Assembly (NCBI GenBank): GCA_013813765.1
Contig: JACCRC010000396.1
Span: 1 to 38,160 of the forward strand
Direction of reading: 5' to 3'
DNA from: Deltaproteobacteria bacterium
GTDB lineage: Bacteria; Myxococcota_A; Polyangia; Haliangiales; Haliangiaceae
DNA: 38,160 nucleotides
The notes beneath the pieces were generated by a model. The model was not told the origin of the DNA and did not search any database. It saw nothing but the letters and a program-made list of their open reading frames with translations. The first letter of the stretch is position 1. The number at the start of each line of letters is the position of its first letter. Position numbers and translations under genes: made by a program. Positions 1 through 33,621 of the stretch are shown here, in pieces.

Positions 1-140
1 CCCGACGCCGAATCCGAACCCGACGCAGAGCCCGGATCGGTTGTCGAGCCCGAACCTGGATCCGTGCCCTGTGCGCTCACGCCAACCGGCGCGGCGATCG
101 CGGCCGCGAGCAACACGACGAGTCCGGCTCGCCGGCTCAC
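1..140 (-). CDS. Secreted protein, N-terminal part only (runs off the window edge)
   Basis: Only the first 46 codons are visible. The GTG start (138-140) overlaps the stop of the small ORF before it (GTGA) and has an AAGGAG Shine-Dalgarno about 10 nt upstream. The peptide begins MSRRAGLVVLLAAAIAAPVG, a short basic n-region and hydrophobic core, followed by VSA|Q, a good signal peptidase I site. After that comes a Gly/Ser/Asp/Pro/Thr linker typical of exported myxobacterial proteins. It is the third gene after MoxR and DUF58. In comparable Bat-type operons this slot often holds a BatD-like or other periplasmic/membrane component, but nothing in the visible 46 codons identifies the family. The start region is the last of three tandem copies (see the repeat at 55-312). 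Confidence 0.6.
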   Translation of the reverse strand, partial: MSRRAGLVVLLAAAIAAPVGVSAQGTDPGSGSTTDPGSASGSDSAS

Positions 141-226
141 GAGCGCATCGCTCCTTCCGCCCGTACGCCAGCCGGCGCGACGACCGCAGCCGCAACCAAC
201 ACCACCAGTCCAGCGCGCTGGGTCAC
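137..226 (-). CDS. Small ORF, second signal-peptide-like copy (29 aa)
   Basis: The GTG start (224-226) overlaps the previous TGA and follows a GAGGAG ribosome binding site. The product is essentially a free signal peptide: Arg at position 4, a hydrophobic core of about 16 residues, AP-AGVRA, then EGAMRS and a TGA overlapping the next gene's GTG. It closely resembles the first 23 residues of the downstream secreted protein. It could be a translated leader peptide that couples or tunes expression of that protein, or a silent duplication scar. Confidence 0.35.
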   Translation of the reverse strand: MTQRAGLVVLVAAAVVAPAGVRAEGAMRS

Positions 227-312
227 GAGCGCATCACTCCTCGCGCGCGCACGCCGAGCGGCGCAGCGAGCCTGCCGTTCACGACGCCCACGATCGCGGC
301 GCGCGTGCTCAT
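223..312 (-). CDS. Small ORF, first signal-peptide-like copy (29 aa)
   Basis: The ATG at 310-312 overlaps the DUF58 stop (ATGA), so ribosomes finishing DUF58 could restart here. The 29-residue product keeps RAA, AAP-GV and RA positions matching the two downstream copies, but its hydrophobic core is broken by N-G-R. It ends at a TGA overlapping the next GTG start. It may be a degraded remnant of a duplicated gene start rather than a functional peptide. Confidence 0.3.
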   Translation of the reverse strand: MSTRAAIVGVVNGRLAAPLGVRARGVMRS

Positions 313-1196
313 CCGTGCGACATCCTCTTCGAGCGTGCCTTGAAGAACGCGACCAGCGCGTCGACGTACGGCTCGTTCGTGCTGACCTTCACGACATCGA
401 GGTTCAGCCGGCGCAGCGCCTGATCGCGCGCGGCCGAGGCTTGCTTCGCGAGCTTCGCGAAGTCGCGGGCAACGCGGCCGCTGGTGTCGACCTCGACGAC
501 CTCGCCGGTCTCGAGATCCTCGAGCACGAGCAGCCCCACGCGCGGCAGCACCTCTTCCATCGGATCCGAGACGACCACCGGCACCAGCTCGTGACGCTGG
601 CGCGCGATCTTCATCGCCTGCTCCCAGCCCGTCGTGAGGAAGTCCGAGACGAGGAACAGCACGGAGCGACGGCGCGCGACCTTCGAGAAGAAGTCGAGCG
701 ACTTCGCGAGATCGGTTCCGCGCGACTGCGGCTGGAACGCGAGGATCTCTCCGATGACGCGCAGCACATGACGGCGGCCCTTCTTCGGCGGCACGTACTT
801 CTCGACCTTGTCGGTGACGATGTACAGCCCGACGCGATCGTTGTTCTTGATCGCCGAGAACGCGACGACCGCGGCCAGCTCCGCCGCGAGCTCGCGCTTC
901 ACCGAGCCCTGCGTACCGAAGTACTCCGACGCGCTCATGTCGATCATGAGGTTGACGGTGCGATCGCGCTCCTCGACGAACTGCTTGATATGCGGCGCGT
1001 TCATGCGCGCCGTGATGTTCCAGTCGATCGAGCGGACGTCGTCGCCGGGGTAATACGGGCGCACGTCCGAGAAGATCAGACCGCGGCCCTTGAACACCGA
1101 GTGGTACTGACCCGAGATCGTCTCGTCGACGAGACGACGCGAGGCGATCTCGATCTTCTTCGCCTTCTTGAACAGCTCCGCGGTGCTCAGCGGCAT
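309..1196 (-). CDS. DUF58 family protein (von Willebrand A-like fold)
   Basis: This 295-residue protein carries the DUF58 signature at residues 46-59 (RPYYPGDDVRSIDW). A DMSAS motif at 86-90 matches the DxSxS metal-ion-dependent adhesion site of VWA domains. DUF58 proteins are nearly always paired with MoxR AAA+ ATPases and are thought to work with them in assembling or maturing envelope or metalloprotein complexes. The molecular role is not established. The ATG lies 2 bp after the MoxR stop, so the genes are co-transcribed. The stop overlaps the first signal-peptide-like small ORF. No N-terminal membrane segment is visible, so this is the shorter, soluble DUF58 type. Family call is confident; function is inferred from context. 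Confidence 0.93.
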   Translation of the reverse strand: MPLSTAELFKKAKKIEIASRRLVDETISGQYHSVFKGRGLIFSDVRPYYPGDDVRSIDWNITARMNAPHIKQFVEERDRTVNLMIDMSASEYFGTQGSVKRELAAELAAVVAFSAIKNNDRVGLYIVTDKVEKYVPPKKGRRHVLRVIGEILAFQPQSRGTDLAKSLDFFSKVARRRSVLFLVSDFLTTGWEQAMKIARQRHELVPVVVSDPMEEVLPRVGLLVLEDLETGEVVEVDTSGRVARDFAKLAKQASAARDQALRRLNLDVVKVSTNEPYVDALVAFFKARSKRMSHG

Positions 1197-1198
1197 CG

Positions 1199-2251
1199 CT
1201 ACGGCACGGGGAGGTACTCGAAGACGCGACGGATCACGTCCTCCGAGCTGACCTCCTCCGCCTCTGCCTCGTAGGTGACGGAGACGCGGTGGCGCATGAC
1301 ATCGAGCGAGATCGCCTTGATGTCGTCCGGCGTGACGTACGCGCGGTGGTTGATGAACGCGTGCGCGCGTGCGGCAACCGCGAGTGACAGCGTCGCGCGC
1401 GGCGACCCACCATACTCGATCAGCGGCGCGAGCTCGCCGAGGCCGTAGTCGCGCGGGCGGCGCGTGGCCTGCACGATGTGAACGATGTAATCGCGCACGC
1501 GATCGTCGATATAGATCTGCGAGACCACGCGGCGCGCGGCCTTCACCTTCTCGATCGTGGCGACCTCGGTCGCCGCCGGCACGTCGAGCGTGCTCATCCG
1601 ATCGAGCATCCCGCGCTCCTCGGCGGCCGTCGGGTACGTGACCTTGATCAGCAGCATGAACCGATCGAGCTGTGCCTCCGGCAGCGGGAACGTGCCTTCC
1701 TGCTCGATCGGATTCTGCGTCGCCAGCACGAGGAACGGATCCGGAAGCTGATGCGTGGTGTCGCCGATCGTGACCTGTCGCTCCTGCATCGCCTCGAGGA
1801 GCGCGGACTGGACCTTCGCGGGCGCGCGATTGACCTCGTCGGCGAGCACGAGGTTCGCGAACAGCGGGCCACGCTTCTGCGTGAACTGCCCGGTGTGCAT
1901 GTTGTAGATGATGGTGCCGGTGATATCGGCCGGCAGCAGATCCGGCGTGAACTGGATCCGCTGGAACGAGGCGTTGATCGTCTGCGACAGCGTCTTCACG
2001 GTCAGCGTCTTCGCCAGACCTGGCACGCCCTCGATCAGGCAGTGACCACCGGTGAGCAGGCCGATCATGATCCGCTCGACCATGTCCTTCTGGCCCACGA
2101 CGACCCTGCCGACCTGCGTGAACACGTCATCGAGGAACGCGCTCGCTTCCTTGACCTCGTGGGTCAGCGCCTCGACATCGACCGTCGATACCGACGGCGG
2201 CGGCGATGACTTGACGTTCGTGAGCGCGACCGGATCGGAAAGGGTGTCCAT
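1199..2251 (-). CDS. moxR: MoxR family AAA+ ATPase
   Basis: This 350-residue AAA+ ATPase has Walker A GVPGLAKT (75-82), Walker B LVLADEVNRA (about 135-144) and sensor 1 ATQNP (177-181), followed by EQEGTFPLPEAQLDRF, all diagnostic of MoxR. MoxR ATPases act as chaperone-like machines with VWA-type partners, here the DUF58 protein 2 bp downstream. I chose the ATG at 2249-2251, preceded by a G-run, because MoxR proteins start about 25 residues before this helix. An in-frame ATG at 2297-2299 has a better-spaced GGGGAGGAG and would add 16 residues, so it remains possible. Any reading upstream of 2299 is antisense to the DUF1844 and HtrA-like genes. The gene is divergent from the DUF1844 gene, so 2252-2364 holds both promoters. 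Confidence 0.93.
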   Translation of the reverse strand: MDTLSDPVALTNVKSSPPPSVSTVDVEALTHEVKEASAFLDDVFTQVGRVVVGQKDMVERIMIGLLTGGHCLIEGVPGLAKTLTVKTLSQTINASFQRIQFTPDLLPADITGTIIYNMHTGQFTQKRGPLFANLVLADEVNRAPAKVQSALLEAMQERQVTIGDTTHQLPDPFLVLATQNPIEQEGTFPLPEAQLDRFMLLIKVTYPTAAEERGMLDRMSTLDVPAATEVATIEKVKAARRVVSQIYIDDRVRDYIVHIVQATRRPRDYGLGELAPLIEYGGSPRATLSLAVAARAHAFINHRAYVTPDDIKAISLDVMRHRVSVTYEAEAEEVSSEDVIRRVFEYLPVP

Positions 2252-2364
2252 GGACCCCCCTGAGGGTGTCACAAAGAATGGGGATATGCCCGTCTCCATG
2301 CTGTCGCGCTCCTCCCCAGGCAACCGCGTGGCGCCCGCGCGTATTCCAGGGTTATGTTCCCCAC

Positions 2365-2648: not shown

Positions 2649-3764
2649 GTGCGCGGCATCTCACTGCCGCTCGTGCTCGGTGCAACCGCTGCGCTCTGCG
2701 CGTGTCGCGAGCGCACCGATGGCGATTCGCCGCGCCCCACCACGACCGGAAGCGCGGGCGTCTCCCGCCCGACAGAGCAGCCGCGAATGTACGCCGCGGC
2801 GCCCGGCTCGTTCGTCGATCTCGTCGCGACCGCGCGGCGCGGCGTCGTCGCGGTTCGCGCGGCGACCCCCGTGAAGTCCGGACCCGCGGCGATGTTCCCC
2901 GGCGCGCCCGAGACCACCGCCGACGTCGGGCTCGGCACCGGCTTCTTGATCGAGGCGCGCGGTACCTACGTCGTCACAACCTACAAGATCGCGTCGGCCT
3001 CCCCCGAGCTCCGCGTGGTCCTCGACGACACGACCGAGGTGCCCGCGAAGATGATCGGCCGTGATGTCGATCTCGACGTCGCGCTCCTCTCCGTCGATCG
3101 CCCTCGCCTGCCGTCCCTCGCGCTCGGCGACTCGAACGACGTGAAGATCGGCGAGTGGATCGTGGTGCTCGGCAATCCGTTCGGCGAGGAGGTCACCGCC
3201 TCCGCGGGCCTCGTCTCCTCGTCCGGCCGCGAGGCTGCTGGCTCGCTGCTGCAGGATCGCGGCATGGCCTACCGCACGTTCCGCCTGTTCCTGCAGACCG
3301 ACGCGCGCATCCACCGTGGCAACTCCGGCGGTCCGGTGCTCGACACCGCCGGTCAGGTCGTCGGCATGGCGGTCGCCACTGGCGATCGACCCGGCGAGCT
3401 CTCGTTCATCCTGCCGATCAACCGGTTCAAGGAGATCGTCGGTCAGCTCCGCGACAGCGGTCAGGTCGCGCGGTCCTGGCTCGGCGCGAAGGTGAAGCCC
3501 GTCACCACCGAGCTCGCGCAGCAGCTCGGGTTGCCCGGCACCGCCGGCGCGTACATCACGGAGATCGTGCCCGGCTCGCCCGCGATCCGCTCCGCGCTGC
3601 GTCCCGGTGACGTGATCCTGCGCTGGAACAGCCAGCCCGTCGACAACCGCACGCTGCCGTGGTCCGTCGCGTCGGCGCCCGCCGGTCAGGCCGTCGCGAT
3701 CGCGGTGTGGCGCAGCGGCGCCGAGATCCAGATCCCGGTCGTGCCCGAGCGCATGCCGCAGTAG
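2649..3764 (+). CDS. HtrA/DegP-like lipoprotein with PDZ domain, catalytic His replaced by Lys
   Basis: The 371-residue protein starts at a GTG 2 bp after the DUF1844 stop. A lipoprotein signal with LCAC (Cys19) is followed by a linker, a trypsin-like domain (about 55-255) and one PDZ domain (about 270-368). Serine-protease landmarks are present: GLGTGFLI (94-101), the Asp in DLDVALL (Asp143) and RGNSGGPV with Ser226. The segment that should carry the catalytic His (normally TNNHV) reads VVTTYKIA, so Lys113 (codon AAG at 2985-2987) occupies the His position. Classical triad proteolysis is therefore unlikely. The protein may be a PDZ chaperone/sensor or a decoy, although an unusual Ser-Lys arrangement cannot be excluded. 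The predicted location is the periplasmic face of a membrane. Confidence 0.9.
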   Translation: MRGISLPLVLGATAALCACRERTDGDSPRPTTTGSAGVSRPTEQPRMYAAAPGSFVDLVATARRGVVAVRAATPVKSGPAAMFPGAPETTADVGLGTGFLIEARGTYVVTTYKIASASPELRVVLDDTTEVPAKMIGRDVDLDVALLSVDRPRLPSLALGDSNDVKIGEWIVVLGNPFGEEVTASAGLVSSSGREAAGSLLQDRGMAYRTFRLFLQTDARIHRGNSGGPVLDTAGQVVGMAVATGDRPGELSFILPINRFKEIVGQLRDSGQVARSWLGAKVKPVTTELAQQLGLPGTAGAYITEIVPGSPAIRSALRPGDVILRWNSQPVDNRTLPWSVASAPAGQAVAIAVWRSGAEIQIPVVPERMPQ

Positions 3765-31630: not shown

Positions 31631-32521
31631 TCACTTCTGCGAGTAGATGAAGGTGACGGCGGTGCACACGGGCACGGCCTTTCCGTTCACGGCGTAGGGG
31701 CGGTACTTCCACTCTCCACGCATCTTTCCCTGGATCTTCGAGTCGTACGCACCGAAGCCGGTGCTCTTCAGCATCGTCACGCCGGTGACCTCGCCGCCGG
31801 CGTTGATGCAGAGCTTGAAGCTGCCGACGAGCTTGTCCTTGCCGGACCGCTGGATCTCGGTCTTCGTGACGTCGTCGGGGATGATCATCTTCTCGCCCGA
31901 GATACGGCTGCCTTCGAGCAGCGTGGGGGGCACGTTCTGCGGCGGAGCGGGCGGAGGAGGCGGCGGCGGAGGCGGCGGAGGCGCACCGACGACACCATTG
32001 ATGTCACCGCCGACCACACCGCCGGCAACACCACCGACCTCACCACCCTCGACGCCGTTCGGATCGCCCTGGTCCTCGACCTTCTGGACTTCCTGCTTCT
32101 CGATCTTGACCGGCTGGACGATGTCCTTGACCTTGATCTTCTTCGGGACGATCTGAACGTTCTGCGGACGCGCGCCACCGGGCGGCGGCGGTGGAGGCGG
32201 CGGCGGCGGCGGGGCGACGGCGAGGTCGACCTGCGTCTTCGGCCGCTCGAGCATCTCGATCTCCCAGATCGACTGGATCCACAACGACACGAACACGACG
32301 AGGTGAACGAAGACCGCGCCGGTCAGCAGCGGTGCGGCCCACTTCGGCGCCTTGCGGTTCTTCGCATCCGCGAAGTTCTTTCCGAACTGACCGGCGGCGG
32401 GCGCGCGCTCCTTCGGCGTACCCGGCGAGCGATACGGATCCAGCGCTGGCTTCCCCTTCACCACGGGCTCGTCATCCCGGATGAACGGGGTGGTCTTGTC
32501 GTCGTCTTCGTTGATCGGCAT
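31631..32521 (-). CDS. tonB: TonB-family energy transducer with two 11-proline tracts
   Basis: The 296-residue protein has an unusually long cytosolic N-terminus (1-60). One membrane helix follows (about 62-84) with a central His73, placed like the essential His of E. coli TonB. The periplasmic part has a first run of 11 prolines (104-114), a Lys/Val/Glu-rich rod (KKIKVKDIVQPVKIEKQEVQKV), a Gly/Val-rich flexible stretch (157-179) and a second run of 11 prolines (181-191). The C-terminal TonB-like domain (about 225-296) contains Cys238 and Cys286, which could form a disulfide. It should couple the ExbB-ExbD-ExbD stator to the nearby Oar-like receptor. RBS AAGGAG is 12 nt upstream. Confidence 0.92.
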   Translation of the reverse strand: MPINEDDDKTTPFIRDDEPVVKGKPALDPYRSPGTPKERAPAAGQFGKNFADAKNRKAPKWAAPLLTGAVFVHLVVFVSLWIQSIWEIEMLERPKTQVDLAVAPPPPPPPPPPPGGARPQNVQIVPKKIKVKDIVQPVKIEKQEVQKVEDQGDPNGVEGGEVGGVAGGVVGGDINGVVGAPPPPPPPPPPPAPPQNVPPTLLEGSRISGEKMIIPDDVTKTEIQRSGKDKLVGSFKLCINAGGEVTGVTMLKSTGFGAYDSKIQGKMRGEWKYRPYAVNGKAVPVCTAVTFIYSQK

Positions 32522-32547
32522 GGTGTTCGGCTGCTCCTTCGAGGCGA

Positions 32548-33621
32548 TCAGCCGCCGGCCTTCTCAGCCGGGCCCCCCGTGGCGGACGGGGTTTGGGTGG
32601 GTGTTACTGGTGCCGACGCACCTTCGCCTGCGGCCTTCTTCGCCTCTTCGGCTAGAACGCGCGACAGTCGCTGGAGATCTTGCGCACTTGCGCGATCGAT
32701 TGCGGACGCCCAGGAGGGGCCGTGGGCGAGCGCGCGGAAGTTGTAGATCGAGGCCTGGAGCCCGTAGAGTTTCGGGTTCTTGGGCGACAGCTCGGCGGCC
32801 TTCTGGAGCGCACCGATGCCGCGGTCCGCCAGCTCGATCGACTCGACCGCGGTCAGCGACTTCGAGTTGAGCTTGGACCAGGCGACGTTGCCGATGAACT
32901 GGTAGGCGCCGACCTTGTTCGAGGGGTCCGTCGCGATCTCGGCGACCTTCGTGTACCACTCGATCGACTTGCGCCAGTCGCCCGCCTTGAGGTTGATGCC
33001 AGCGAGGTTGCCCATGATCTCGGGGTCGTTCGGCTTGTCCTTGAGCAGCCCCGTCCAGTAGTCGAGCGCGAGCTTGAACTGACCGGAGTCGATCCACACC
33101 TGCGTCATCTGCTTGCGGGTGTCGTCATCCTTTGGGTTGGCCTTGAGCCACGCGAGGAAGTGCGTGGCGGCCGCCTCGGCGAGCTGCTCCGGTGAGAGCA
33201 GGCAGAGGTCCGTCTTCTGGCAGTGATAGCTCGAAGCGCAGACGTTCTTGTCGTCGCAGTCGTCGAACCGGCGGTCGTCGTCTTTGACGCAGACCTGGTG
33301 GTTCGAATACGTGACCTTCGGGATCACATCGCAGGCGAACGTGCCCTTGATGCCGAGGCGCACGGGCTTGTCGAGACCCGGCTTGAAGATCTTGGAGTAC
33401 GCGAGGCCGAGGTTGTAGTGGATGATCGGATCCTCGACCTGCGTCAGCGCCTTCTCGTACTCGGCGGCCGCATCGATGAACGCGGTCTCGCGGAACAGGC
33501 GGTTGCCCTTGCGGGTACGGTTGCGCCCGTCGAGCTCTTCACATCCCATCGATCCCAGCGAGACCGCGGAGATCACCGCGATCGCGAGGATCGTCTTCCA
33601 ACCGTCGAGGCGCCGGCTCAT
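32548..33621 (-). CDS. TPR lipoprotein with a six-cysteine insert
   Basis: The 357-residue protein starts the TonB operon. A lipoprotein signal ends SLGSMGC (Cys27). TPR-like helices follow (GNRLFRETAFIDAAAEYEKAL, then NYNLGLAYSK-type pattern, and further repeats from about 170 to 310 such as GNLAGINLKAGDWRKSIEWYTKV). Between the first and later repeats lies a hydrophilic insert with Cys97, 111, 122, 128, 134 and 140, probably disulfide-bonded. The C-terminus is Ala/Pro/Thr-rich and disordered. TPR lipoproteins in such operons probably scaffold the trans-envelope complex in the periplasm. The ATG directly follows a promoter with almost no leader. Confidence 0.86.
   Translation of the reverse strand: MSRRLDGWKTILAIAVISAVSLGSMGCEELDGRNRTRKGNRLFRETAFIDAAAEYEKALTQVEDPIIHYNLGLAYSKIFKPGLDKPVRLGIKGTFACDVIPKVTYSNHQVCVKDDDRRFDDCDDKNVCASSYHCQKTDLCLLSPEQLAEAAATHFLAWLKANPKDDDTRKQMTQVWIDSGQFKLALDYWTGLLKDKPNDPEIMGNLAGINLKAGDWRKSIEWYTKVAEIATDPSNKVGAYQFIGNVAWSKLNSKSLTAVESIELADRGIGALQKAAELSPKNPKLYGLQASIYNFRALAHGPSWASAIDRASAQDLQRLSRVLAEEAKKAAGEGASAPVTPTQTPSATGGPAEKAGG

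What the first reader, a model, noticed from the sequence alone, without database searches (positions are those of the whole stretch)
55..312. Triplicated start module: two free signal peptides in front of a secreted gene
Three 86-bp tandem units each hold a start codon and a signal-peptide-like sequence, the last two each preceded by a Shine-Dalgarno. The first two end at a TGA overlapping the next start, so ribosomes could pass along MoxR-DUF58-sORF-sORF-secreted protein by reinitiation. Units 2 and 3 differ by many silent and conservative changes and keep Arg, the hydrophobic core and the AP-x-GV end, consistent with selection to be translated. This could be an unrecognised leader system that titrates or senses the secretion machinery, or a relic of promoter/start slippage.
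Basis: partly seen in the sequence, partly recalled or inferred. Interest (0 to 1): 0.62.

Follow-up and report, generated by a model that had tools for sequence, protein, structure and literature searches.

The report
Triplicated gene-junction repeat before batD
In one uncultured myxobacterial genome, the short DNA segment where one gene ends and the next (a secreted BatD-like protein) begins has been copied three times in a row; this leaves two tiny extra reading frames that probably just pass ribosomes along, and related genomes have a single copy, so it looks like a tolerated accident and not a new control system.

Summary
On the minus strand at 312-55 lie three ungapped 86-nt units (identities 54/86, 59/86, 48/86; shuffles about 27, maximum 44). 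Each has a start codon, a signal-peptide-like reading frame and an upstream Shine-Dalgarno. The first two frames (29 codons) end at a TGA overlapping the next start. In 22 of 28 relatives the DUF58 stop directly overlaps the next start (within 4 nt in the other six), and the ORF there is the long downstream gene (BatD-like wherever read, except G027), with one signal peptide. No related genome has the repeat. The tails of units 1 and 2 resemble the DUF58 3' end (p=0.001, 0.014). So the stop/start junction plus signal-peptide region was tandemly duplicated in this lineage. Because the unit is 86 nt (2 mod 3) and carries its own SD and overlapping stop, a termination-reinitiation chain is preserved. 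Polarised changes show constraint only in unit 3, the real signal peptide (5 silent:1 replacement). Unit 1 is neutral (6:12) with a broken hydrophobic core; unit 2 cannot be told from neutral (4:5), though its core is intact. The leader/sensor idea lacks support; relay translation is plausible but unshown. BatD continues intact on another contig (C4).

The parts
1199..2260 (-). MoxR-type AAA+ ATPase gene, upstream in the operon (true start uncertain; the frame is open to 2938)
   Evidence: Pfam AAA_3 E=7.6e-66, AAA_lid_2, bpMoxR
309..1196 (-). DUF58/vWA protein gene; its TGA overlaps the ATG of unit 1 (ATGA)
   Evidence: Pfam DUF58 E=5.9e-79; in relatives this stop abuts or overlaps the next gene's start
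324..329 (-). SD-like AAGAGG inside the DUF58 3' end, ancestral
   Evidence: duplex -6.3 kcal/mol; AAGMGGATGGC present in most same-genus relatives
223..312 (-). unit 1: 29-codon ORF at the ancestral batD start position; degenerate signal peptide
   Evidence: 6 silent:12 replacement lineage-specific changes, core hydropathy 1.43
237..242 (-). SD-like GAGGAG before the GTG at 226
   Evidence: duplex -8.8 kcal/mol; the tail resembles the DUF58 3' end, p=0.001
137..226 (-). unit 2: 29-codon ORF, intact hydrophobic core, ends at a TGA overlapping the GTG at 140
151..156 (-). SD-like AAGGAG before the GTG at 140
   Evidence: duplex -8.6 kcal/mol; tail versus DUF58 3' end p=0.014
3..140 (-). unit 3 and start of the BatD-like secreted gene: true signal peptide, then a Gly/Ser-rich linker, cut by the contig end; the gene resumes on contig C4 of the same genome (L077:1-1020)
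   Evidence: remainder found at E=6.8e-157, 76% identical to the G003 protein

Best explanation
This is a lineage-specific tandem triplication of an operon junction. The copied segment ran from the last ~20 nt of the DUF58 gene (with its embedded Shine-Dalgarno and the stop/start overlap) through the signal-peptide region of the batD-like gene. Ancestrally, ribosomes ending DUF58 restarted on the overlapping ATG at 312 and made BatD. After duplication that ATG opens only a 29-codon remnant, and the functional signal peptide is the third copy (GTG 140). Because the unit length is 2 mod 3 and each copy brought a stop/start overlap and an SD, ribosomes can still hop DUF58 -> sORF1 -> sORF2 -> BatD, or start afresh at the strong third SD, so the insertion is tolerated. 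The two peptides are most likely by-products without a job of their own. Shown: repeat, frames, overlaps, single-copy relatives, resemblance of the tails to the DUF58 end, detectable constraint only in unit 3. Inferred: that the chain is translated, and that coupling is why it persisted.
For: Repeat far above chance. In all 28 relatives with a readable junction the next long ORF starts at or within 4 nt of the DUF58 stop, is at least 314 codons where complete, and has no period-86 repeat. The unit tails align with the DUF58 3' end (p=0.001, 0.014) and not with the sequence after unit 3 (p=0.27, 0.76). Units 1 and 2 agree 13/14 in the SD/stop-start tail but only 39/69 in the body (Fisher p=0.008), as expected if the relay and not the peptide is kept. 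Lineage-specific silent:replacement changes: u1 6:12, u2 4:5, u3 5:1. Downstream junctions of the same operon also use GTGA/ATGA overlaps (batD/vWA at L077:1017-1020, vWA/vWA 2267-2270, vWA/TPR 3481-3484). Published work: 13 of 14 tested overlapping pairs are strictly coupled (PMC6728339), distances of ~20 nt nearly abolish coupling (PMC10666635), and the last 15 nt of an upstream gene suffice. Two same-genus relatives carry other insertions at this point that stay in frame with the overlapping ATG (G003, two 51-nt repeats; G013).
Against: No expression data. The resemblance of the tails to the DUF58 end is short and needs gaps. Unit 2 keeps a core as hydrophobic as the true signal peptide (P about 0.005 if it drifted neutrally from unit 3, post hoc), so constraint on unit 2 is not excluded. 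The strong third SD could make coupling irrelevant. No close strain of the same species was available to date the event.
Confidence: 0.68

Rival explanations
1. The two sORFs are a selected leader/uORF system: the free signal peptides, or ribosome traffic over them, tune or sense export and adjust BatD synthesis.
For: Both frames are open, have SDs and overlap the next start. Unit 2 keeps a signal-peptide-grade core. dN/dS between units 2 and 3 is about 0.27 (dN 0.19, dS 0.72).
Against: Absent from all 28 relatives with a readable junction. The silent excess comes from unit 3, not unit 2. Amino-acid differences 2-3 (8) are compatible with constraint on unit 3 only (P=0.38) and even with none (P=0.11). 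Unit 1's core is destroyed. No RNA structure (z=+2.66), no Rfam match.
Confidence: 0.05
2. Pure relic: neutral tandem duplication; the sORFs are not meaningfully translated and BatD starts de novo at GTG 140 from its own strong SD.
For: Unit 1 changes are exactly neutral (6:12), unit 2 not distinguishable from neutral. SD of unit 3 is strong (-8.6). Under neutral drift 67-87% of such GC-rich 29-codon frames stay open anyway at pGC 0.7. Divergent tandem arrays are common here (59 TRF rows with period >=30 in 793 kb).
Against: Perfect 86-nt spacing and no frameshift despite 37% divergence of units 1 and 2. The relay tails are conserved more than the bodies (p=0.008). Ribosomes ending DUF58 meet ATG 312 in the context in which the next gene starts in relatives.
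Confidence: 0.22
3. Assembly artefact near a contig end in a metagenome-assembled genome.
For: The window begins at a contig end, in a Gly/Ser repeat where relatives' contigs also break.
Against: Units differ by 31-44%, far beyond sequencing error or mis-joined identical reads. The junction lies 55-312 nt inside the contig and continues into an intact operon. The gene resumes in frame on C4.
Confidence: 0.04

Closest known systems
Translational coupling by termination-reinitiation at 4-nt overlaps (ATGA/GTGA), PMC6728339 and PMC10666635
   Same: Stop and start overlap by 4 nt with an SD in the upstream gene's end; at least 15 nt of upstream gene end seems to be present in each unit; the downstream operon uses the same overlaps
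   Different: Two 29-codon mini-cistrons, copies of the downstream gene's own start, are interposed; coupling has not been measured here
ORF-11/ORF-17/ORF-18 of class 1 integron attI1 (reviewed in PMC8876359)
   Same: Short ORF with its own SD upstream of a gene, thought to hand ribosomes to it; the peptide sequence matters little, the initiation region matters
   Different: ORF-11 feeds genes lacking an initiation region; here the last gene has its own SD, and the sORFs derive from tandem duplication of the stop/start junction
MoxR-DUF58-Bat operons (BatD with export signal, e.g. Leptospira, PMC3557215)
   Same: Gene order MoxR, DUF58/vWA, BatD-like secreted protein, vWA, vWA, TPR
   Different: Pfam BatD match of the relatives' protein is below the curated cut-off (19.9 against 24.1 bits); the junction repeat is not part of any described Bat operon known to me

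Membership tests
Termination-reinitiation coupled gene pair | Stop and start codons overlap or lie within a few nt | tested here: met
   ATGA 312-309, GTGA 226-223, GTGA 140-137
Termination-reinitiation coupled gene pair | Overlap conserved in relatives | tested here: met
   22 of 28 relatives overlap by 4 nt, the other 6 lie between -1 and +4; holds for the DUF58/next-gene junction, not for the extra sORFs
Termination-reinitiation coupled gene pair | Downstream translation depends on upstream translation | not testable with these tools
   needs reporter fusions
Regulatory leader peptide / uORF attenuator | Leader ORF conserved across relatives | tested here: not met
   0 of 28 relatives; no true DNA match in 30 family genomes
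Regulatory leader peptide / uORF attenuator | Alternative RNA structure or attenuator/terminator | tested here: not met
   fold z=+2.66, no Rfam match, no minus-strand terminator-like site
Functional secretory signal peptide | Basic n-region and uninterrupted hydrophobic core | tested here: inconclusive
   met by units 2 and 3 (KD10 3.40, 3.15), not by unit 1 (1.43); no signal-peptide predictor available
BatD family | Pfam BatD domain above the curated score | tested here: inconclusive
   closest relative's protein 19.9 bits against cut-off 24.1, E=0.0012; gene context fits

The most novel reading that the evidence does not exclude
Duplication of a stop/start junction is self-tolerating: because each copy carries its own SD and overlap, it creates ribosome relays, so coupled operons can lengthen by minting mini-cistrons. 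The free signal-peptide copy in unit 2 could be a nascent secreted or membrane small protein.
Probability: 0.2. Interest if true: 0.4.

Novelty: new variant of a known kind. Interest (0 to 1): 0.22.

Why it matters
If the relay is real, it shows how a tightly coupled operon survives insertions at its junctions, and a route by which short ORFs with signal peptides can arise from an existing gene start. It would be a natural three-step reinitiation chain whose links have diverged at different rates. If not, it is a tolerated minisatellite in one lineage and matters only as a warning against reading function into tandemly copied start regions.

Tried and rejected
Rfam search of 1-1500: nothing. 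RNA fold: less stable than shuffles, so no leader structure. Promoter scan: no sigma-70-like site. Search of the unit DNA in 30 family genomes: apart from the window itself only short GC-rich matches of up to about 93 nt, which I read as chance. Units 2-3 dN/dS first looked like selection on both (third positions p=0.022), but polarising with unit 1 put the signal in unit 3. A -1 frameshift fusing the units was considered; by eye there is no slippery heptamer before the TGAs. The 51-nt repeat at the same place in G003 was tested as a dispersed element: its core occurs only twice in that genome, both at this junction, so it is a local duplication.

Full report
Observation. The minus strand of 312-55 holds three contiguous 86-nt units. 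ORFs start at ATG 312, GTG 226 and GTG 140; the first two have 29 codons and end in a TGA that overlaps the next start by 4 nt. Tandem Repeats Finder finds the array (period 86, 2.2 copies). Ungapped identities are 54, 59 and 48 of 86, against about 27 (sd 4, maximum 44) for shuffles. All three starts have an SD-like site (duplex -6.3, -8.8, -8.6 kcal/mol).

Setting. The window is contig C37 (38,160 bases) of a 562-contig genome. Its relatives include metagenome-assembled genomes titled Myxococcales and Kofleriaceae. Upstream genes are a MoxR ATPase and a DUF58/vWA protein. The secreted gene is cut off by the contig end inside a Gly/Ser-rich stretch, and its remainder is at the start of contig C4 (E=6.8e-157, 76% identity to the G003 protein). 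There it is followed by two vWA proteins and a TPR protein, each joined to its predecessor by a GTGA or ATGA overlap (domain names of these three read from the sequence, not tested). This is a Bat-type operon; the relatives' secreted protein matches Pfam BatD only below the curated score, while L. biflexa BatD is described as having an export signal (PMC3557215).

Relatives. I read the sequence after the DUF58 stop in 28 relatives, 10 of them of the same genus. In 22 the DUF58 stop overlaps the next start by 4 nt; in the other 6 the start lies between -1 and +4 nt. In every one the ORF starting there is long (at least 314 codons where complete). It is the BatD-like gene wherever read, except in G027, where a different gene follows. 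None has a 29-codon ORF or the 86-nt repeat. The ATG at 312 is therefore the ancestral start of the secreted gene, and the triplication is specific to this lineage. The unit DNA has no true counterpart in the 30 family genomes held.

Origin. The tails of units 1 and 2 (GAGGAGTGATGCGCTCGTGA, GAAGGAGCGATGCGCTCGTGA) align with the DUF58 3' end (GAAGAGGATGTCGCACGGATGA; p=0.001 and 0.014) and not with the sequence following unit 3 (p=0.27, 0.76). The duplicated segment thus seems to run from the last ~20 nt of DUF58 through the signal-peptide region. That explains why each copy has an SD and an overlapping stop. With 86 nt (2 mod 3), the frame of one copy runs into the copied DUF58 stop of the next, so the chain of overlaps is automatic and did not have to be selected step by step.

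Selection. Polarised with unit 1, the lineage-specific silent:replacement counts are 6:12 (unit 1), 4:5 (unit 2) and 5:1 (unit 3); about 30% silent is expected at random. Only unit 3, the real signal peptide, departs (p=0.015). Unit 1's hydrophobic core is broken (10-residue hydropathy 1.43; relatives without an insertion at the junction 1.9-3.3). Unit 2's core is intact (3.40), which neutral drift would rarely give (P about 0.005, post hoc); this is the one residual hint of constraint on it. The SD/stop-start tail is more conserved between units 1 and 2 (13/14) than the bodies (39/69; p=0.008), which fits preservation of the relay over the peptide, but the boundary was chosen after seeing the data.

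Mechanism. Overlapping stop/start codons couple translation strictly in 13 of 14 tested pairs (PMC6728339). Coupling is almost lost at ~20 nt spacing (PMC10666635), and 15 nt of upstream gene suffice. Moving the BatD start 172 nt away from the DUF58 stop should have broken coupling; the copied overlaps bridge it. Two same-genus relatives have other insertions at this very place: G003 has two 51-nt in-frame repeats found nowhere else in its genome, and G013 has a longer in-frame insert. Both keep the overlapping ATG in frame with the signal peptide. Three insertions of three kinds that each leave the ribosome path open is suggestive, not significant. Whether ribosomes use the path here, or start afresh at the strong third SD, needs an experiment.

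Ordinariness. Divergent tandem arrays are common in this genome: 59 rows of period >=30 in 793 kb, of which only five (including this one) have a period not divisible by three. GC-rich 29-codon frames stay open in 67-87% of neutral simulations at pGC 0.7. RNA structure, Rfam and promoter searches are negative. I find no support for a leader that senses or titrates secretion.

Verdict. A real, lineage-specific tandem duplication of a coupled gene junction, giving two probably translated but probably functionless mini-cistrons; interest low to modest.

Noticed in passing
L007 (G003:C681) about 46240-46345: The closest relative has its own local tandem repeat at the same junction: two 51-nt units (98% match) inserted in frame between the overlapping ATG and the signal-peptide core, found nowhere else in that genome.
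   Followed up: yes
L008 (G013:C12), the ~270 nt after the DUF58 stop: About 270 nt of repeat-like sequence (CGCAAAGACGCAAAGG-type) sits in frame before the signal peptide of the BatD-like gene.
   Followed up: partly
window 1-60 and L077 1-80: The Gly/Ser-rich linker of the BatD-like protein is low-complexity DNA at which assemblies break in this genome and several relatives; C37 and C4 are evidently neighbours.
   Followed up: yes
G000:C378:6210-7106: A second DUF58 paralogue in the same genome reads with one in-frame TGA, a possible pseudogene or frameshift.
   Followed up: no
L019 (G027:C451) after the DUF58 stop: In this relative the overlapping downstream ORF is not BatD-like; it looks like an SGNH-type hydrolase (KVVAFGDSWG) at the same ATGA junction.
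   Followed up: no
window 31939-32222: Three short-period arrays (12, 12 and 3 nt) lie within a 310-codon minus-strand open frame (31634-32563).
   Followed up: no
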